The notes under the pieces are model-generated. The model was not told the DNA's origin, did no database searches, and worked only from the letters and a program-made list of their open reading frames with translations. From NCBI RefSeq assembly GCF_001719065.1, contig NZ_LWAF01000007.1, positions 1 through 64,000 on the forward strand: a stretch of 64,000 bases of DNA, read 5' to 3'. This document shows, in pieces, positions 54,076-64,000 of the stretch. This DNA comes from Fervidobacterium thailandense. GTDB lineage: Bacteria; Thermotogota; Thermotogae; Thermotogales; Fervidobacteriaceae. The stretch's first letter is position 1. Each line of letters starts with the position of its first letter. Both the position numbers and the translations under genes were made by a program.

Positions 54076-55555
54076 GGGAGTACAATAAATTTTGTGTCTG
54101 GAAAATCTTAGCTTGCTAAGGTGTATAATATCTTATCCCAACAGAAAGGAGTGTATCGTATGGCTTCTATCTCCAATGAACAATTCCGTCAGGTCGTTGA
54201 AGATACTTTTAAACAACTTTCTTTGCAATACAACGTCGATTTACAACCTGGTTCTCCTCTTCGTTTGTTCTTAGAAGCCGCTATCAATGCCATTATGCGT
54301 GGTGAACGCGATGTCTTTCTTTCTAATGACCCTGATAACAAAGCTAATGGCTTTTATTCCCGTTTCCTTGATACCGCTATGGGCAAACTTAATCTTTCTG
54401 TCCCTCGCGATCGTAATTCTAACTTCCGTCCTCAAATTATTCCTGATAAGTATGTCAGAAGCGATGAGTCTTATTCTAACTTACTCCAATCTCTTCTTGT
54501 CAATGGTTATTCTAATTCTTCTTTACGTAATACTCTTAAAGCTCTTGGGCTTTCTTATTCTCAAAGTGATTTAGACCACATTGTTAAGTCTCTCAAAGAA
54601 GAACTTATGCTTTTCAAAACTCGTCAGTTGCCTGAACAAGCTCTTGCTCTTTTCATTGATGCTTATCATTGCTTTGTTAGAAGTGATTCTCGTGTTAGTG
54701 AACATGCTTGTTACATTATCGTTGGTATCGATTTAAAAGGTCAAAAAGATATCTTCGGTGTTTATACTTTCCCTGGTGCGGTCTCAAAGAGCCTTGCATC
54801 ATCGTTGGTGATGATTTCCCAGGCTTGCATGACAAACTCAAAATGGTATATCCAAAAGCTCATCATCAGTTATGTTTAGTTCATCTTCAAAGAAATATCA
54901 GAAAGAATCTCCCCAAACAAGATGCTTCACAACTCAACGAACAAGTCAAACAGCTCATACATTTTGACGATGTTCATACCGGAAAAGTTCACCTTGAAAG
55001 GTTATTTAGTCAGTATGTGAATAATCCAAAATACTCCAGCTACATCAAAACGCTATTTGAGAAAATAGAGCAATACACAGCATTCTTGAATTTCCCAAAG
55101 CCAGTAAGAAAACACCTTTACACAACAAATGTCGTTGAAAGTGTGAATAGCTTAGTTGAAAAAATTAGGATATCCCAAGGAGGATACTTCAACAGTATTG
55201 AGGTATTAGAACTGAACATATACTTAAGAAGACAAAATCTCAAACAAACGAAATGGAAGAACTCAGTACCAAGAATAGCTGGAGAAGCGTATGAAGTATT
55301 ACAAATATACAATGTGATGTACAAACTAAGCAGATGAAAAGCAAAAGACAATAGCAAAACAAGAAAGAACAAACGAAAAAGAAAAACTAAGAAACCCTTC
55401 GAAGGATAATAAAGCTAATGATAAGGTCATTGACAAATGAATAGTAAAATGGAAAAACTTAGCAAAAGGAAGAGTAAGGAGACAAAAATTAAAATAATTT
55501 ACTTCCTCATGTGGTTGTTCTCTTTTCTTCGGACACAAAATTCTTGGTCAGTCTC
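54076..55555 (+). mobile_element. IS256-family element, copy B
   Basis: 1480 bp with ends GGGAGTACAA (54076) and GAGACTGACC (read inward from 55555). A perfect 8-bp target duplication ACTGTAAA flanks it (54068-54075, 55556-55563). It is very similar to copy A and lies in opposite orientation, with a net loss of 49 bp inside the transposase. Confidence 0.96.
54160..55337 (+). pseudogene. IS256-family transposase with internal deletion
   Basis: It reads MASISNEQFRQ onward, without the frameshift of copy A, through LPEQALALFIDAYHCF to VYTFPG. There a net 49-bp deletion removes the NESSLNWNVVLRDLFDR segment and shifts the frame. GLKEPCIIVGDDFPGLHDK and the remaining C-terminal half continue in another frame to 55337. 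Inactive as it stands. Confidence 0.92.
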
Positions 55556-56458
55556 ACTGTAAATCTAACTTCTCGAATATTTCGTTCCATTCGTTCAACT
55601 TCCTTTCACTCCCTCCACAAAACTCCATCCCGTTATCCATCCGTATTTTCATCCTCCCTCTCACATTGTGCACCCTTAACCATAATGCCACTATCGAAAT
55701 AAACATGAACCCAAACGTTGAATTTAATTCATACGAGTATGCCGTAAATCTTGTTCGTGTCGCCACGTCTATCATATTCCATTCGTATCTCGGCAATCTG
55801 TAATTTTTCATGTGTTCATACACTTCTTTCGGTAAGCTTTCTTTGTCCAATAAATGCTTCGTATCTAATTGAAACTCACTGAATGGTATTAACGCTTCGT
55901 AATCGTATAAGCTCCTTTCTCCTTTCTTTGTCTTCCTTGTCTTTTTCGGTACTTTATTTCGTTTCAGAACAGATTTTATCGTATTTTCACTTATCACAAG
56001 CCCATATTTCTTCTGCAAATACGTAGACAATCTTCTGTATCTAAATCCTGTCCTCTTGGCTTCTTCAACGATTATGTCTTCAAACTCTGATTTTAGCTTC
56101 TTAGGGGAGTTTTTCGGCCTTCTTGACTTATCTTCTAAACAATCGTACACAGCTCTTCTTACTGTTGCTCTTGCGATACCTAATATCTTTGCAGTCTTTG
56201 ATACATTCCGGTTATTAGCTTCAAAGACTTTACGAACGACTTCCCTTGCTTTTTGAGGGGATAGTTTTCTTAGCTCGTGATATGATATAATGTTCATAGG
56301 CTGACCTCCCATCCTGGAAGGAATTTGGTAGTACGATAAAAGGGGATGTTACATGTTTTAATTATATCAAACAGGATGGAGGCAGCCTCTTGTGTTATTT
56401 TGTTTCTCTACTTGGTAAGTATGTCCACACCTATTCGTGGCTTTCCAAATTTCATCCC

Positions 56459-56722: not shown

Positions 56723-56760
56723 ACGGCGGTTCGAAATGCAAACCGCCGTTTTGTTTTTCT
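56723..56760 (+). terminator. terminator after tRNA-Arg
   Basis: A 9-bp stem (ACGGCGGTT 56723-56731, AACCGCCGT 56741-56749) closes a 9-nt loop and is followed by TTTGTTTTT. Confidence 0.9.
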
Positions 56761-56775: not shown

Positions 56776-56784
56776 TGGTATAAT
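56776..56784 (+). promoter_or_regulatory. extended -10 promoter of the chemosensory operon
   Basis: TGGTATAAT (TATAAT at 56779-56784) is an extended -10 box just after the tRNA terminator and 44 bp before the first gene. The -35 region is only T-rich. Confidence 0.6.
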
Positions 56785-56827
56785 CTTTCCAGAAAAGCAA
56801 AGATAGAAGAAACGTGAGGTGGTTAGC

Positions 56828-57334
56828 TTGAGGATGGCTGAAAGAACATCCGGTGTTGAAGGTAGCGTCAGAAAGCGCGAGCTCACAAAACTCACCTATT
56901 ACCTTACGATATTCCTCGGATTCGTCACTTTCGTCTTTGGTTTTATCTCCATCGCGGTCTACCTCGGTGTTCTTTACCTTTCACCTGTTATTTCCAACCT
57001 AACCGGTATTGTTTTCCTGACGTCCAGGTATTTTCTCCTGACGCTGATAATGTTAACTTTTGCTGGATTTTTTACAGCATCTTATCCTGTTTCGAAAGCG
57101 GTCAACGGAAATTCTTCATTTCACATAATTATGGCCTTCGGATGTTCTGGAGTAGCGTTGGGGACGCAGGTTTTCAAGTTGGCTATATCAGGTCCGACAT
57201 GGATAGGCTTGGATCTTCTTGGTAACAATGGAAATACGATGGAAATGATGTACTTAACAGCTGTTTATTTTGTCTATTCATTAATACTCTTCGTCGTCGA
57301 GTTCACCTTACTCAAGGGTGAGTTCTCCGAGTAA
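56828..57334 (+). CDS. small integral membrane protein of unknown function
   Basis: The gene is not recognised. The 168-residue product has a charged N-terminus (about 25 residues) and four predicted membrane spans (near 25-50, 60-88, 95-118 and 140-160). TTG 56828 is taken as start because GAGGTG is six bases upstream; ATG 56834 and GTG 56819 are alternatives. It is the first gene after the promoter and ends 24 bp before the CheR-TPR gene, so it may be a membrane component of the chemosensory system. That role is inferred from position only. Confidence 0.7.
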   Translation: MRMAERTSGVEGSVRKRELTKLTYYLTIFLGFVTFVFGFISIAVYLGVLYLSPVISNLTGIVFLTSRYFLLTLIMLTFAGFFTASYPVSKAVNGNSSFHIIMAFGCSGVALGTQVFKLAISGPTWIGLDLLGNNGNTMEMMYLTAVYFVYSLILFVVEFTLLKGEFSE

Positions 57335-57358
57335 AGGTCGTTTTGGAGGTAATAAAGT

Positions 57359-58486
57359 TTGGTGAACGAAAATTTGGCAACCCAAGTTAGTAGGATACTT
57401 TCAAAGCACAGACTGAAGATTAACGATCGTACTTTGAAGCGGTTTTTGACCGCGTTGGAAAGTATCAACGACGTTTTAACACCGGAGTTGATAGAAATTC
57501 TGGTTCTTGACAATCTAACGATTGGTGAATCGTACTTTTTTAGAGACAGAAAGGTTTACAATTTTCTTAGAAAGATCTTGCCGTCCAAGTCCGACTGGAC
57601 AGTGTTATCAATCGGTTGTTCACGCGGTGAGGAAGTTTACAGTTTCTCCATGGTTGCAAAGGAAGTTGGCGCGAATTTTGAAATTACCGGTCTGGATGTC
57701 TCACCGCAGCGAATCGAGGAAGCGAAGGTTGGTTGTTATAAATTTTGGAGCGTTCGGTTTCTTGATGAAAATGAGTTGGAGAGTTTTTTCAACAAGGTTG
57801 GTGACAAGTTCTGCGTTAAATCGGATTACCGAACAAACGTTACGTTCACGGCTGGGAACTTCTTGAGTACAAGCTTTGACAAAAAGTTCGATATCATCTT
57901 CGCCAGACGTGTATTGTTGTACGTGGAAAATGAAGGCTTGGCTATCAAAAAGATGTACGATCTGCTGCAAGATGAAGGGTTGCTGGTTTTGGGGTTGGGT
58001 GAGTATTTTCCCCAGGTACTGGAAATTTTCGAACCCATTGCTGAATGTCCTTGCGTTTACAGGAAGATTCAGAGAAAAGAAATAGCAACAACTGCCTATA
58101 AGAATGTCTCGGAAATTCGGAAAACTGCCGATTTCACCGCAAAACCACGAGCGGAGAACGCAAATGTAAAGGACGAATCAAAGAAGCTAAAAGCACAAAA
58201 AGAGGTTATCACCAAGACACTGGAACGCGAGCTTAATCTTGAACCCGCTTTAAGAGTCGTTGAGCACTGTTTGGAGAACAAAAAGCTAATAGAGGCGGAG
58301 AATTTCCTCAGGAAATTGGTTCACAACTTCCCAACGCACTATCTTGTTTGGAAATATCTCGGTATTTTGGAGATGGAAAAGGGAAATGTAAGAATTGCCA
58401 AAGAGTATCTCAAAAAGGCAGCGTTCTTGAATCACTTGGACGATGAAATCTGGCAGCTGTTACGTTTGACCAAAGGAAATGGGTAG
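57359..58486 (+). CDS. CheR-type methyltransferase with C-terminal TPR (WspC-like)
   Basis: A 375-residue protein. The N-terminal helical domain (about 1-70) has the CheR pattern LTIGESYFFRD, and the SAM domain has SIGCSRGEEVYSFS (84-97), GLDVSPQRI (111-119) and DIIFARRVLLYV (178-189). A charged linker (about 240-300) leads to a TPR-like C-terminus (LVWKYLGILEMEKGNVRIAK). CheR-TPR fusions belong to alternative chemosensory systems such as Wsp and Frz. It should methylate the receptor at 63034. Start TTG 57359 lies eight bases after GGAGGT; GTG 57362 is possible. Confidence 0.88.
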   Translation: MVNENLATQVSRILSKHRLKINDRTLKRFLTALESINDVLTPELIEILVLDNLTIGESYFFRDRKVYNFLRKILPSKSDWTVLSIGCSRGEEVYSFSMVAKEVGANFEITGLDVSPQRIEEAKVGCYKFWSVRFLDENELESFFNKVGDKFCVKSDYRTNVTFTAGNFLSTSFDKKFDIIFARRVLLYVENEGLAIKKMYDLLQDEGLLVLGLGEYFPQVLEIFEPIAECPCVYRKIQRKEIATTAYKNVSEIRKTADFTAKPRAENANVKDESKKLKAQKEVITKTLERELNLEPALRVVEHCLENKKLIEAENFLRKLVHNFPTHYLVWKYLGILEMEKGNVRIAKEYLKKAAFLNHLDDEIWQLLRLTKGNG

Positions 58487-58541
58487 AAACGGGTAGTTCC
58501 AAAGTGAAGAGTCCGATGAAGAACGAGATGAGGGTGGTAAC

Positions 58542-59309
58542 ATGCGCTTTTTTCTTTGCGAAATTGAGCATGCAAAGGGGGTTCATTTCCTCGCGCTTCC
58601 AACCGAAGATTTCCTTGGTGTGAGTGCTACATTTGTTCCCGTCCCAGACGGTGAGCGTGCCTTCGGCTTTGCAGAATACGAGGGACGTCTTTATCCTGTC
58701 GTCACACATGCCGACCTTGAAAAACCCATCTTTAAGTATTTCGCAGTGTATCAAAATTTCGCATTCGGTGTAACTCGTATCCTTGCCGAGGTTGAGAGTA
58801 CACCCACCCCCCTGACAAAGACAAACCCCCACGAATCTCTTGCCAGTACCGGTTGCGAGGAGATTTTAAGGGAAGTTTCCCATTACACCGGAATAGTCGT
58901 CCACGAGGGACAAGTTTACTACGTTTACAACTTCAGCAACGTGAAGGTTCCAAACGATGCAATCGTTGAAAAGGTACTCCTCAGAAAGGTTACAGAGCAG
59001 TACACGGATACCGGAGGAGATTTCATCATACTCGGTGGAAAATACGCTGTTTGCAAAGATCGGGTAAAAACTATACTTTTGGCGAACCTTGTGACACCAT
59101 TTAAAACGGAAGAATTCGACGGTTTCATAGACTACGAACGTGTAATTCCTGTCAAAAACTTGGATACCGGTGACTACGTTGTCGTACTCGAGAATGTCGC
59201 ATACCGGACGGGGAAAGTCTACGTTGTGAGTGGAACCGTTCTCGAACATCCGGAGAAAGGGGAGAAGATCCTCGAAACTGACGCAGGAGTCTTCAAAATA
59301 GTCGAATAA
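58542..59309 (+). CDS. divergent CheW-like coupling protein
   Basis: A 255-residue cytoplasmic protein that I cannot assign firmly. Two segments have the CheW pattern of a strand, G/E-rich turn and PV: FAEYEGRLYPVV (43-54) and GFIDYERVIPVKNL (194-207). The second is preceded by FIILGGKYAVCKDRVKTILL (161-180), which resembles the start of a CheW half-barrel. A third, weaker match is GIVVHEGQVYYVYNF (117-131). Its position between CheR-TPR and CheA supports a role as adaptor between receptor and kinase, as WspB/WspD have. Other functions cannot be excluded. Confidence 0.6.
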   Translation: MRFFLCEIEHAKGVHFLALPTEDFLGVSATFVPVPDGERAFGFAEYEGRLYPVVTHADLEKPIFKYFAVYQNFAFGVTRILAEVESTPTPLTKTNPHESLASTGCEEILREVSHYTGIVVHEGQVYYVYNFSNVKVPNDAIVEKVLLRKVTEQYTDTGGDFIILGGKYAVCKDRVKTILLANLVTPFKTEEFDGFIDYERVIPVKNLDTGDYVVVLENVAYRTGKVYVVSGTVLEHPEKGEKILETDAGVFKIVE

Positions 59310-59369
59310 CGTAAAGCGCGTTTATCTCGAAAACCGTCACCAAATGTTAGAATGCTGGGAGCGTGGAAT

Positions 59370-61136
59370 ATGAACACAGATTTCTTAGAAATTTTCTTTC
59401 AGGAATTACGTGAAAAGGGTCAAAGTGCCGTTGAAATGATAAAGCGATTCCTCGAAACCCGAGAACGCGAGTTGATAAACGAAATCTATCGCGTGTTCCA
59501 CACGATAAAGGGCTCAGCAAGTTTAGTTGGGCTCATTGGATTTCGCGATCTAATGCACAATTTGGAAAGCTACTTTAAGAAATATGAAAGTGGTGAGCTC
59601 GAGCTAACGGATGAACTTCTAGCAAGAATGCTCTCGATCATCCCGGAACTGTTGAACAGGACCGACGATATTTCTGAGGAGGAATTGAAATCTTACCTTG
59701 ATATTCTCGAGGGCAAGCAACGAGCTCAGGCTGCAGTTGTGAAGGAAGCTTTCTCCGAGAATCTTTCGGGTATTCTGATAGATATAATTTCCAAAACACT
59801 CAGTATTGAAAATAGCCTAATGAGGAACGATGTCAAGAACGCACTGAGAGAGGTTCGGACGCTCAAGTCCAGGTTGCTGAATATTATGGAGGAGAATTTC
59901 TACGTCAAGCTCTCCAATCTCCTGCGCAACTTCGACACGCTTGTAATCCAAGAAGCGACTCTCAATCAAAAGAAGGTGAAGCTGGAACTCCAAATCGGTC
60001 AGGAGAAAGTGGAAAGGAAGGACTCGCAAGTATTATTCGACGCATTGGTCCACCTTGTGAGAAACGCCATAGCCCACGGTATAGAGCCTTCTGAGGAAAG
60101 AAAAAGGAAAGGAAAGCCCGAGTATGGTACGATAACTCTTAGAAGTTATCTTGAGGGTGGAGAGTTGTACCTTGAAGTTGAAGATGACGGTGCGGGAATC
60201 GATCTTGAAAAGGTGAGGAAGAAAGCTGCTGAAAAAGGACTCGGGCACTTGCCACCGGAGGAGATTATCTTCGTACCGGGTTTTTCGACTAAAGACACTG
60301 CGGATGGTACGGCCGGTAGGGGTGTGGGGCTGGATGCCGTTAGGAACTTTGCCATGGCGCGCGGAGGCAACGTCGAGGTAGTTACAGCCCCCGGAAAGGG
60401 CACGAAGTTCATCGTTCATTTCCCGGTGAAAAGTTTCGTCGTGAAAGTCGTCGTCGTGGAAGCAGATGGAGTGATTTTCGCGGTGGAAACAAATGATCTA
60501 ATGGCAGTGATAGTGAGTGCTCAAACTATTGATGACAAAGTCAAGTACAAGGACAAGTTATACGATATTTCGTTTTCTTCAGCCAATCCGAGGTTCTGCC
60601 TCATCACATCCTCCAAGAAGGCACTCCTTGTGGATAGCATCGTAGGTGTTTTCGATGGACAAATCAGCAACGAATCCTACGGCTTTGTGAAGGGTTTTGT
60701 GAAAAACATATTCATCTATCCGCTGCCAGTGATCGACGTAAGTAAGATTTCCAAACGCGCCGAAAAATCCTTCAAGAAAAGAACGATACTAATAGTCGAT
60801 GATTCGTTCGTAACCAGGTCAATACTCTCAAAGTTTCTTAGGACTTTCGGTTACGAGGTTCTGGAAGCAAAATCTGGCGAAGAGGGCATAGAAATCTCGA
60901 AAAAAACCGATGTGGATTTGGTAGTGTGCGATGTCGAGATGCCCGGATTGGACGGTTTTGAAACAACCAAGCGTATAAAAGAGATAAAACCGAAATTGCC
61001 AGTTGTAATTTTCAGTACTTTGTCAGAAGAACAGTTAATTAGAGGCATGGAAGTTGGTGCGGATGGATACCTTTCAAAAAGCGAACCACCTGAGAGGTTG
61101 CTCAAGCTTGTTGAAAGGTTGGTCGAGGTCGAATGA
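59370..61136 (+). CDS. CheA-type hybrid histidine kinase with receiver (WspE-like)
   Basis: A 588-residue kinase. The Hpt domain (1-110) has phospho-acceptor His44 in FHTIKGSASLVG. A short dimerisation region (about 130-200) follows. The ATPase domain (205-355) has the N box HLVRNAIAHGIEP (228-240), DDGAGID (272-278), PGFSTKD and GRGVGLDAV. A CheW-like regulatory domain spans about 356-460, and a receiver (470-588) has D477/D478, D521 and K570. There is no CheY-binding P2 domain. The receiver may act as a phosphate sink or output. ATG 59370 is preferred to 59352 because GGGAG lies about nine bases upstream. The stop overlaps cheB by 4 bp. Confidence 0.93.
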   Translation: MNTDFLEIFFQELREKGQSAVEMIKRFLETRERELINEIYRVFHTIKGSASLVGLIGFRDLMHNLESYFKKYESGELELTDELLARMLSIIPELLNRTDDISEEELKSYLDILEGKQRAQAAVVKEAFSENLSGILIDIISKTLSIENSLMRNDVKNALREVRTLKSRLLNIMEENFYVKLSNLLRNFDTLVIQEATLNQKKVKLELQIGQEKVERKDSQVLFDALVHLVRNAIAHGIEPSEERKRKGKPEYGTITLRSYLEGGELYLEVEDDGAGIDLEKVRKKAAEKGLGHLPPEEIIFVPGFSTKDTADGTAGRGVGLDAVRNFAMARGGNVEVVTAPGKGTKFIVHFPVKSFVVKVVVVEADGVIFAVETNDLMAVIVSAQTIDDKVKYKDKLYDISFSSANPRFCLITSSKKALLVDSIVGVFDGQISNESYGFVKGFVKNIFIYPLPVIDVSKISKRAEKSFKKRTILIVDDSFVTRSILSKFLRTFGYEVLEAKSGEEGIEISKKTDVDLVVCDVEMPGLDGFETTKRIKEIKPKLPVVIFSTLSEEQLIRGMEVGADGYLSKSEPPERLLKLVERLVEVE

Positions 61137-61684
61137 AGAGGGTTATCATCGTCGGCTCGGCGGGGAGTCCCACGCAGGTTATAGAACTTTTGAAGTTCGG
61201 AGAACCTGTATACTTTCCGATAGTTTTATGCATTCACCTCACCAGTGCGGTAATCGAGACTTTCGCCGAACACATAACGAGGGAGACACAACTTCCAACT
61301 GTGGTTGTGAACGGTCCGACCAAACTGACTAATGGTATTCATCTACCAGCAGGAGGTAAGGATATCATCTTCCTCACACGTGACCTGGTAACTGTAAAGG
61401 AAGGGCCGGGAAAAATCCATCCCTCGATCTCAATGCTGTTTCTCTCACTGAAGAAAGTAGCCGATGAAAATTTTATTGTTATCGTTCTTGGGGGTCTTGG
61501 GGACGACGGAAAAAACGAAGCGAAGAGTTTGCTAAAAAAGAAAGTGAGATTCTTAATTCAGGAGGATGCTGAATTTCCCTACCTTCCAAGAAACATCCAT
61601 CGAGAACTGGGAGAGAGAAGTGAACCGAGAACATTCGCTGAAATCAAGTCCATTCTGAAATCAATAAATAAAGATGCTCGCTGA
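61133..61684 (+). CDS. CheB methylesterase catalytic domain without receiver
   Basis: The 183-residue protein matches only the C-terminal catalytic half of CheB. It shows the serine motif VGSAGSPTQV (Ser9), the histidine in LCIHLTS (His35), and LGGLGDDG (Asp125), the expected Ser-His-Asp triad. It would remove methyl groups or deamidate glutamines on the receptor. The N-terminal receiver of ordinary CheB is absent, so phosphorylation control must be lost or supplied by another protein. It overlaps the kinase gene by 4 bp. Confidence 0.88.
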   Translation: MKRVIIVGSAGSPTQVIELLKFGEPVYFPIVLCIHLTSAVIETFAEHITRETQLPTVVVNGPTKLTNGIHLPAGGKDIIFLTRDLVTVKEGPGKIHPSISMLFLSLKKVADENFIVIVLGGLGDDGKNEAKSLLKKKVRFLIQEDAEFPYLPRNIHRELGERSEPRTFAEIKSILKSINKDAR

Positions 61685-61696
61685 GGGGGGAGAGAG

Positions 61697-63037
61697 ATGA
61701 AAAAAGTCCTCGTCGTGGATGACTCAGATGTTTGGCGCACATATCTCAAGAATCTTTTGGAATTGAATGGTTGCTCCGTGGAGGTTGCCAGAGACGGACT
61801 TGACGGTCTGAATAAATTCTTCAGCTTTCTTCCGGATGTGGTAATTGTTGACCATGTGATGCCCAAGCTAAACGGCATTCACTTTGCAAGGTTCATCAGA
61901 AGTTTTAACGTGTTCAAACGCGTAGGGATTCTTATGCTCACGGGCGCTGACGAGACGGTTAATCCCTTTTGGGCAAAGAAGAGTGGGGTAAACGTATTTG
62001 TTAAAAAAACTGCCCCGCAAGAAGATATAGAGAAAGCTATTTTATCTTTCATCTCTCAACCCTACGCAATCGAGTGGACAAGGGAGATTTACAAGATCCA
62101 CATAGAACCCTATGGAGAGCTGGTAGACATTCTCGACGAGAGTTTGAAGAAAGCAACTCTGACAGACGAGATACTGAGTTATGCAAGCTACATATTCGAT
62201 GAGTTCACCGTTTTCCGAAAGATATATGAACTATTTTTAGAGCTCTTGGAGTTTGAGGCAGTTTACTTTGCCGTTGCATCGCTTTCAAGGATGAGGATTT
62301 ACGGCTTTGGAAAAAGCGAACTCGCGGCTCCAGAGGAAGTTAGAAGAGCGTTGGAAATGAGCAGCGATCTGAGTATCTACTCGTCTGTTGAAGAGCATTT
62401 TCAAGGGTCAAGAAAACTATCAGAAAGTTTTGTGCTTGAGGAAATATTCTCATCAAACGATGAGTTACTTGGCTTTGTTCTCTTTGAGAATCCAAAGATT
62501 GTTGAGGCAACTCAAAAGACATTGCTTTACGTCAACGATGCTCTGGGAAATCTTTTCCTTCTCATGAACGATTACTACAATCTTAACAAAGGTCTTGAAT
62601 GTGATACGATTACCGGGGCATACAACATGACATTTTTTAGAACAAAGTTGGCCTCGTCCATAGACTTTGCGATTAGGAACGCCCTACCTATTTCAGTTGT
62701 GAAAACAAAAATTGTGAACCTCCGAGAATTTGTCAACAGGTGTGGAGGAAATCTTGCCAACGAGTTCTTGAAGAAAGTGGGTGAAATACTCCAGGAAACC
62801 TCCCAAGAATTAGTCGGCAGGATCAAAGTGGATGAGTTTTGCAACATATTGATAGGTGCAAAATATGAGCGTGCCCAACAAATCGCTGAGGATATAAAGA
62901 ATAAAATTAAATCCATAATGGAAAAGGACGATAGGCTTTGCTGGGTAAAGCTTGAATTTCATATAATCGAGTGGAACGGAGAACCCTTAGGTGAGATGAT
63001 TGAGAAAATTTACTCGAAGGGGGACGCACAACTATGA
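61697..63037 (+). CDS. response regulator with degenerate GGDEF domain (WspR-like)
   Basis: A 446-residue protein. The receiver domain (1-118) has D8/D9, phospho-acceptor D52, T82 and K103/K104. A GAF-like middle region spans about 155-290. The C-terminal domain (300-440) follows the GGDEF fold: DTITGAYNMTFF at its start, a diverged metal-binding region, then GRIKVDEFCNIL. The signature GG(D/E)EF is replaced by KVDEF (377-381), and the usual DxDxFK metal site reads KTKIVNLREF. It is therefore unlikely to make cyclic di-GMP. GGGGGAG lies before the ATG; the stop overlaps the next gene by 4 bp. Confidence 0.88.
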   Translation: MKKVLVVDDSDVWRTYLKNLLELNGCSVEVARDGLDGLNKFFSFLPDVVIVDHVMPKLNGIHFARFIRSFNVFKRVGILMLTGADETVNPFWAKKSGVNVFVKKTAPQEDIEKAILSFISQPYAIEWTREIYKIHIEPYGELVDILDESLKKATLTDEILSYASYIFDEFTVFRKIYELFLELLEFEAVYFAVASLSRMRIYGFGKSELAAPEEVRRALEMSSDLSIYSSVEEHFQGSRKLSESFVLEEIFSSNDELLGFVLFENPKIVEATQKTLLYVNDALGNLFLLMNDYYNLNKGLECDTITGAYNMTFFRTKLASSIDFAIRNALPISVVKTKIVNLREFVNRCGGNLANEFLKKVGEILQETSQELVGRIKVDEFCNILIGAKYERAQQIAEDIKNKIKSIMEKDDRLCWVKLEFHIIEWNGEPLGEMIEKIYSKGDAQL

Positions 63038-64000
63038 AATTGAGCTTAAAGTACGCGTTGGCTGTTTCATTGTTGCTAATTTCGTTCGTAACAATATTGC
63101 TCTTTGTGACTTTTAACCAGTTTGCAAAGATTACAAGAACCAACGTTCTTAACGTTTTTAGACTTGAGGTAGAGGCTTTGGCAAAGTACAAACATTATGA
63201 ACCCCTCTTTGCAACAAAACCATCTTTTGGATATTACTATGTTCTAAACAGCGATGGGATTGCAATATTCCACACTGATCCATCCAAAGTAGGCATCGAT
63301 GCAAAACAAGCTGTACCAGGGCTTTTTGAATACATGCAAAAACACAAGTCTGGCATCTACTCGTACGTTTTTGAAGGAGTTGAGAGACACATTGCCTTCA
63401 CCTTCGATGGGGAGAATTTTATCGTACACGCGGCTACAAAAGATGATCTTTTTAGGGATCTTCAGAGGTTTCGCAGAAGACTTTTCACCTTTGGTTATCC
63501 TCTACTTATATTAATTTCTCTGATTCTTGGTTACGTTTTTGGTGAGTTTCTCGTAAAAACCCCAAAATCCCAGTTGGAGAATTCCAACAAATTGTTCGGT
63601 TCTATTTCCGAAGCAATTATCACAGCTTCCACTTCCACAGCGGAGATCAAAGCCATGGCCGAGAATACTGAAAAAGCATCGTTGGAACTTGACAAATCCG
63701 TTGAGGAATTCGCCGCGTACCTCGAGGAAAGTAGAGCCGAAGTGGAGTCCACGTTATTGCGGATAAAACACTTTACAGACACTATCGAAGATATTACCAA
63801 ATCGTCTTCAAAACTTGCCGAGTTGACCGAAACACTTTCATCTTTGGCTGAAAAGATTACCGACATTTCCGATAATATAACCGTGCTTGCGATTAACGCA
63901 TCCATCGAGACGAGTAAGCAAAATATCGATCGGGAAGGGTTGGCAAGAATTGCGGAGATGATCATGGACCTTTCGAACTCAACACGAAACTTGGCGAAAG
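63034..64000 (+). CDS. chemoreceptor with Cache-like sensor, partial (WspA-like)
   Basis: This frame is open to the end of the window (322 codons seen). A span at about 7-29 and another at about 150-172 enclose a region of about 120 residues with FGYYYVLNSDGIAIFH and SGIYSYVFEGVERHIAF, a single-Cache pattern. The cytoplasmic part is a long coiled coil; its hairpin tip reads ITVLAINASIETSK, diverged from the usual [12 protein letters not shown]. No clear HAMP domain follows the second span. It overlaps the preceding gene by ATGA and is the probable input of this operon. Confidence 0.88.
   Translation, partial: MKLSLKYALAVSLLLISFVTILLFVTFNQFAKITRTNVLNVFRLEVEALAKYKHYEPLFATKPSFGYYYVLNSDGIAIFHTDPSKVGIDAKQAVPGLFEYMQKHKSGIYSYVFEGVERHIAFTFDGENFIVHAATKDDLFRDLQRFRRRLFTFGYPLLILISLILGYVFGEFLVKTPKSQLENSNKLFGSISEAIITASTSTAEIKAMAENTEKASLELDKSVEEFAAYLEESRAEVESTLLRIKHFTDTIEDITKSSSKLAELTETLSSLAEKITDISDNITVLAINASIETSKQNIDREGLARIAEMIMDLSNSTRNLAK

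What the first reader, a model, noticed from the sequence alone, without database searches (positions are those of the whole stretch)
56828..64000. Wsp-like chemosensory operon with an unconventional output
Seven consecutive genes encode a four-span membrane protein, CheR-TPR, a CheW-like adaptor, a CheA-REC hybrid kinase, a CheB esterase, a REC protein with a GGDEF-fold end, and a receptor. Several junctions overlap by 4 bp, and the cluster has its own promoter after a tRNA terminator. Wsp of Pseudomonas has the same kinds of parts, but there the output WspR makes cyclic di-GMP. Here the output domain lacks the catalytic motif, CheB lacks its receiver and a membrane protein leads the operon. 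This may be a distinct chemosensory class in thermophilic bacteria with an unknown output.
Basis: partly seen in the sequence, partly recalled or inferred. Interest (0 to 1): 0.8.

Follow-up and report, generated by a model that had tools for sequence, protein, structure and literature searches.

The report
Chemosensory operon with defunct c-di-GMP output
This heat-loving bacterium carries a second, chemotaxis-like sensing system whose relatives end in an enzyme making the signal molecule cyclic di-GMP; in this bacterial family that enzyme has lost its active site but is still conserved, so the system probably signals in another way.

Summary
The operon is real. Six window genes form a conserved unit: cheR-TPR, a divergent long cheW, cheA-REC, a receiver-less cheB, a REC/GAF-like/GGDEF-fold regulator (F) and a Cache-type receptor that ends 287 bp past the window. 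It recurs in at least four Thermotogota families. The leading four-span membrane gene is a bystander: widespread but unlinked outside this genus. The CheA forms a Thermotogota-only clade, apart from genuine WspE, Tfp and the two flagellar CheAs sampled, so it works like Wsp but is not a Wsp system. In the window's family all ten operon copies form one clade. They have lost the metal and GTP motifs, the I-site and the C-terminal end, yet keep the fold, the receiver phosphorylation residues and a new conserved C-terminal motif. Two genomes lack F altogether. The genome keeps other intact cyclases, so this is a pathway-specific loss. Most likely the phosphorylated pseudo-cyclase now works by protein contact; the main rival is an unlinked intact REC-GGEEF cyclase taking over. 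New variant of a known kind; computation only.

The parts
56819..57334 (+). Four-span membrane protein (171 aa); bystander, not part of the conserved unit
   Evidence: Homologues in 39 of 61 genomes, but next to this operon only in the window's genus
56723..56749 (+). Terminator-like hairpin after the tRNA pair (9-bp perfect stem, 9-nt loop, then T run)
   Evidence: Sequence reading; not reported by the scan, whose loop limit is 8
56779..56784 (+). Perfect TATAAT, possible -10 element; no good -35
   Evidence: Sequence reading; the scan found no sigma-70 site
57359..58486 (+). cheR-TPR (375 aa), receptor methyltransferase
   Evidence: PF01739 2.9e-32 and weak TPR; orthologues in 21 loci; 23% to WspC
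58542..59309 (+). Divergent, long cheW (255 aa), coupling protein
   Evidence: 7 of 20 orthologues hit PF01584; model pLDDT 82 matches CheW structures
59352..61136 (+). cheA-REC hybrid kinase (Hpt, dimerisation, ATPase, divergent CheW-like domain, receiver); true start probably 59370
   Evidence: Pfam; phospho-accepting His50, ATP motifs and REC Asp/Lys invariant in 20 orthologues; P3-P5 aligned to the genome's canonical CheA, hhalign 100%
61133..61684 (+). cheB esterase without receiver (183 aa)
   Evidence: PF01339 6.5e-18; Ser/His/Asp triad aligned with E. coli CheB S164/H190/D286
61697..63037 (+). F: output regulator, REC (about 1-120), GAF-like (about 140-297, from the model only), pseudo-GGDEF (about 298-446)
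   Evidence: Pfam; REC residues D,D,D,T,K kept; RIKVDEF in place of RYGGEEF, no DIDxFK, no RxxD, shortened C-terminus; model pLDDT 87, best PDB matches PleD and WspR
63034..64000 (+). Receptor (MCP); continues 287 bp beyond the window, 417 aa in all
   Evidence: L009 7035-8288; MCP structures 7e-9 by profile; signalling domain and weak Cache hits in the f9 orthologue

Best explanation
This is a complete chemosensory phosphorelay of a Thermotogota-specific, Wsp-like lineage. A Cache-type membrane receptor (G), a coupling protein (C) and the hybrid kinase CheA-REC (D) form the signalling complex; CheR-TPR (B) and CheB (E) tune it by methylation. CheA passes phosphate to the receiver of F, and its own receiver probably serves as a phosphate sink or for feedback. 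Ancestrally, phosphorylated F made cyclic di-GMP. In the window's family the cyclase domain lost catalysis once, by losing the GG, the metal-binding Asp motif, the I-site and the last helix. It was kept as a folded, phosphorylation-switched module that now most likely signals by protein contact, for example by pairing with one of the active cyclases or another partner. Shown by sequence: the parts, their active residues, the orthology, the loss and the conservation. Inferred: array formation, phosphotransfer, the direction of signalling, and the contact output; no partner is identified.
For: Order B-C-D-E-F(-G) is conserved across families f1, f3, f6 and f9. F is intact (RYGGEEF, DIDxFK, RxxD, full C-terminus) in f3, f6 and f9, and degenerate in all 10 f1 operon copies, which form one clade at 100/100. 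The receiver, His and ATP residues are invariant. Between the two genomes of the window's genus dN/dS is about 0.03 for REC and 0.06 for the pseudo-GGDEF, and the family shares a new C-terminal motif, close to EWNGExxGEIxEKL. The GGDEF fold is still predicted with high confidence. The genome keeps at least 9 intact GGDEF/GGEEF domains, 2 EAL and 2 PilZ, so cyclic di-GMP signalling itself is not lost. Precedent: in Burkholderia the Wsp output is WspH, which lacks the cyclase domain and works without changing cyclic di-GMP (PMC8552884).
Against: No partner of F is identified. Synonymous sites are near saturation, so the dN/dS values are rough. The pseudo-GGDEF evolves faster than the receiver, while in intact orthologues the two evolve more alike. 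Two genomes of one genus lack F and kept the rest, so F is dispensable there.
Confidence: 0.5

Rival explanations
1. Cyclic di-GMP is still the output, made in trans: CheA phosphorylates an unlinked intact REC-GAF-GGEEF cyclase, and F has become a phosphate sink or competitor.
For: The window's genome has an intact REC/GGEEF paralogue at G000:C9:17802-19088 with all REC residues. Genus g5 has a further intact solo copy, 41-49% identical to the f9/f6 operon copies, present also in the two genomes that lack F.
Against: The paralogue class of the window's genome also occurs in genomes where this CheA was not found (G027 in f3, G030 in f2), so it does not depend on it. The g5-type solo copy also occurs in G007, where this CheA was not found, and is absent from G000.
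Confidence: 0.3
2. The pathway is decaying in this family: F is a dying gene and the operon is on its way out.
For: F is missing from the operon in G005 and G014, CheA is split into two frames in G008, and no matching CheA was found in genus g3 or, at full length, in g4.
Against: In the window's genus and in g2 all genes are intact with conserved catalytic residues; in the window's genus dN/dS is near 0.03 for CheA, receptor and REC. The pseudo-domain has a conserved new end.
Confidence: 0.12
3. An ordinary flagellar chemotaxis accessory cluster, with F acting as a CheY variant on the motor.
For: F keeps an active receiver, and pseudo-GGDEF proteins can act by contact.
Against: The genome has a separate canonical CheA/CheW (G000:C3). 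The CheA is not in the clade of the canonical F1 and F7 CheAs, and no flagellar genes adjoin the operon in the window's genome.
Confidence: 0.06

Closest known systems
Wsp system (WspA-F plus WspR), reference locus Azoarcus sp. KH32C pAZKH (L215)
   Same: CheR-TPR, CheA with C-terminal receiver, CheB, dedicated receptor and, in other Thermotogota families, a REC-GGDEF output, all in one operon
   Different: One long CheW rather than two, CheB without receiver, different gene order, GAF-like domain inside the output, CheA in a separate clade
WspH variant of Wsp in Burkholderia (PMC8552884)
   Same: A Wsp-like core whose output lacks a working cyclase domain and acts independently of cyclic di-GMP
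   Different: WspH replaces the cyclase by a hybrid kinase; here the cyclase fold is kept but its active site is gone
ACF-type pathways with CheR-TPR and multidomain regulators (PMC3447774)
   Same: CheR-TPR, and a response regulator combining REC with GAF/GGDEF-type domains
   Different: CheA does not group robustly with the ACF-like CheAs sampled here
PleD / WspR-type REC-GGDEF cyclases
   Same: Best PDB fold matches of F
   Different: A-site, metal and I-site motifs lost in the window's family

Membership tests
Wsp system | Syntenic wspA-wspF with two CheW proteins (WspB, WspD) | tested here: not met
   One 255-aa CheW between cheR and cheA, receptor last; Azoarcus wsp has receptor first and two cheW genes
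Wsp system | CheB (WspF) with N-terminal receiver | tested here: not met
   Esterase only, about 180-214 aa, in 22 loci
Wsp system | CheA groups with WspE | tested here: not met
   WspE clade 100/100; Thermotogota clade 99/99, apart
Wsp system | CheR-TPR and CheA with C-terminal REC | tested here: met
Wsp system | REC-GGDEF cyclase output (or WspH) | tested here: not met
   Degenerate in the window and its family; intact in f3, f6 and f9
Active diguanylate cyclase (GGDEF) | GG(D/E)EF A-site and metal-binding Asp | tested here: not met
   RIKVDEF; DIDxFK replaced by TKIVNL
Active diguanylate cyclase (GGDEF) | Cyclic di-GMP synthesis in vitro | not testable with these tools
   Needs a biochemical assay
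CheW | CheW sequence family or fold | tested here: met
   7 of 20 orthologues hit PF01584; fold match to CheW, probability 1.00
Receiver (REC) of F | Asp-Asp, phospho-Asp, Thr, Lys | tested here: met
   Aligned with E. coli CheY D12, D13, D57, T87, K109
ACF chemosensory class | CheA clusters with the ACF class of Wuichet and Zhulin | tested here: inconclusive
   ACF-like CheAs taken from neighbourhoods, not from the original class set; deep order unresolved

The most novel reading that the evidence does not exclude
A chemosensory lineage of its own in Thermotogota whose output was switched, within one family, from cyclic di-GMP synthesis to a non-catalytic, phosphorylation-controlled pseudo-cyclase acting by protein contact.
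Probability: 0.42. Interest if true: 0.65.

Novelty: new variant of a known kind. Interest (0 to 1): 0.5.

Why it matters
It is a natural before-and-after series: the same operon with an intact cyclase in three families, a retained pseudo-cyclase in a fourth, and no regulator at all in two genomes. It makes testable how a chemosensory pathway changes its output, and it gives a second case beside Burkholderia WspH. It also shows a CheA/CheW pair so divergent that the standard CheW model misses the CheA domain in 19 of 20 members and the CheW protein in 13 of 20, so surveys that rely on those models may overlook it.

Tried and rejected
The 4-TM leader as a system component: rejected, unlinked elsewhere. 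Downstream genes (winged-helix/Rossmann H, I, lgt) as members: conserved next to the operon only in g1 and g2 and replaced by unrelated genes elsewhere, so not core. General loss of cyclic di-GMP signalling as the cause of the decay: rejected. CheW by direct profile comparison with one CheW: uninformative; PDB sequence search: no CheW hit. First CheA tree had one very long misplaced row (L112), removed. Two region requests failed on length.

Full report
OBSERVATION. Reading frames and domains confirm cheR-TPR (57359-58486), a CheW-like gene (58542-59309), cheA-REC (59352-61136), a receiver-less cheB (61133-61684), a REC/GGDEF-fold regulator called F (61697-63037) and a receptor (from 63034). 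The contig shows the receptor to be complete at 417 aa, followed by a winged-helix/Rossmann gene, an unknown gene and lgt. Only two junctions overlap by 4 bp. A terminator-like hairpin and a lone perfect TATAAT lie between the tRNA-Arg gene and the run; the scan reported neither.

WHAT BELONGS. In neighbourhoods from relatives the unit cheR-TPR, cheW, cheA-REC, cheB, F is kept in families f1 (own), f3, f6 and f9, with the receptor directly after F in f1, f6 and f9; the one f6 locus starts at cheW near its contig end. Flanking genes differ between families. The 4-TM gene that leads the run has relatives in 39 of 61 genomes, but beside this operon only in the window's genus; it is a bystander. 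No match at E 1e-40 was found in family f2, in genera g3, g7 and g9, or at full length in g4.

COMPONENTS LOOK FUNCTIONAL. In CheA the phospho-accepting His, the ATP motifs and the receiver Asp and Lys residues are invariant in 20 orthologues. Its P3-P5 part aligns with the genome's canonical CheA at 100% probability, although Pfam sees a CheW domain in only one of 20. The CheW protein is recognised by Pfam in 7 of 20 orthologues, and its model matches CheW and CheA-P5 structures. CheB keeps the catalytic triad, and F keeps all five receiver residues.

THE OUTPUT. Orthologues of F in f3, f6 and f9 carry RYGGEEF (RFGGEEF in one), a DIDxFK-type motif, an RxxD I-site and a complete C-terminus. 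All ten operon copies in f1 have lost these: the window's copy reads RIKVDEF, TKIVNL, no RxxD, and stops before the ADxALYxAKxxGKNR end. A tree built without the GGDEF part puts the f1 operon copies in one clade at 100/100, so the simplest account is one loss in an ancestor of the family. The domain has not become random. Between the two genomes of the window's genus dN/dS is about 0.06 in the pseudo-GGDEF and 0.03 in the receiver; synonymous sites are close to saturation, so these are rough. The new end (close to EWNGExxGEIxEKL) is shared across most of the family, and AlphaFold still predicts the fold (pLDDT about 90 in that region), with PleD and WspR as the best matches. Two g5 genomes lack F with the rest in place. 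Cyclic di-GMP signalling components are otherwise intact in this genome: at least 9 intact GGDEF/GGEEF domains, 2 EAL and 2 PilZ.

ALTERNATIVE CARRIERS. Intact unlinked REC-GAF-GGEEF proteins exist, one in the window's genome at C9 and another type in g5 and g3. They could take the phosphate in trans, but each type also occurs in genomes where this CheA was not found (G027, G030; G007). This remains the strongest rival.

COMPARISON. A textbook Wsp operon on an Azoarcus plasmid served as reference. Own proteins share 23% (WspC), 31% (WspE), 26% (WspF) and about 21% (WspR) with it in BLAST alignments that cover only part of the proteins. In the CheA tree the WspE sequences form one clade (100/100) and the Thermotogota sequences another (99/99), away from Tfp and the canonical F1/F7 CheAs. 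Published work restricts Wsp to beta- and gammaproteobacteria and describes WspH as a cyclase-free output in Burkholderia (PMC8552884). CheR-TPR genes are known to sit mostly in non-motility clusters with multidomain regulators including GGDEF and GAF (PMC3447774). No paper describing this Thermotogota lineage turned up in eight full-text searches, which does not show that none exists. In a Fervidobacterium species cyclic di-GMP levels have been measured to change during growth on keratin (PMC13157175), so the messenger is live in at least one organism that I take to belong to this group.

TAXONOMY. That f1 is the family of Fervidobacterium and Thermosipho is my inference from general knowledge, not tested.

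VERDICT. A real, conserved, Wsp-like chemosensory lineage. Its class-wide output is, by motif, cyclic di-GMP; the unusual part is the family-specific conversion of that output into a conserved pseudo-cyclase. Mechanism beyond sequence is inference.

Noticed in passing
L062:6820-8190, L063:2118-3488, L064:9647-10990, L065:2082-3416: A second Thermotogota CheA lineage (about 450 aa: Hpt and ATPase, no receiver), sister to the one studied, in f3; it follows a 105-116 aa CheW-like-looking gene.
   Followed up: partly
L059:8948-10733 (G008): CheA split into two overlapping frames in a one-contig genome: frameshift, error or bipartite kinase.
   Followed up: no
L042:10676-12346 and L043:3041-4876: Extra receptors with a dCache_3 sensor inserted in or after the operon in two g2 genomes.
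   Followed up: partly
L045 versus L047 (G002, G017): cheB and F have no synonymous differences while cheR, cheW and cheA differ at dS near 0.36-0.42: recent recombination within the operon.
   Followed up: no
L200/L201 (f11): A different che cluster (separate small CheA/CheW-like pieces, CheA of 707-718 aa, larger CheB) carrying an intact F homologue.
   Followed up: partly
window 54121-55337 and 55554-56312: A Mutator-family transposase broken into two frames, and a helix-turn-helix/integrase-like gene, just upstream of the tRNA pair.
   Followed up: partly
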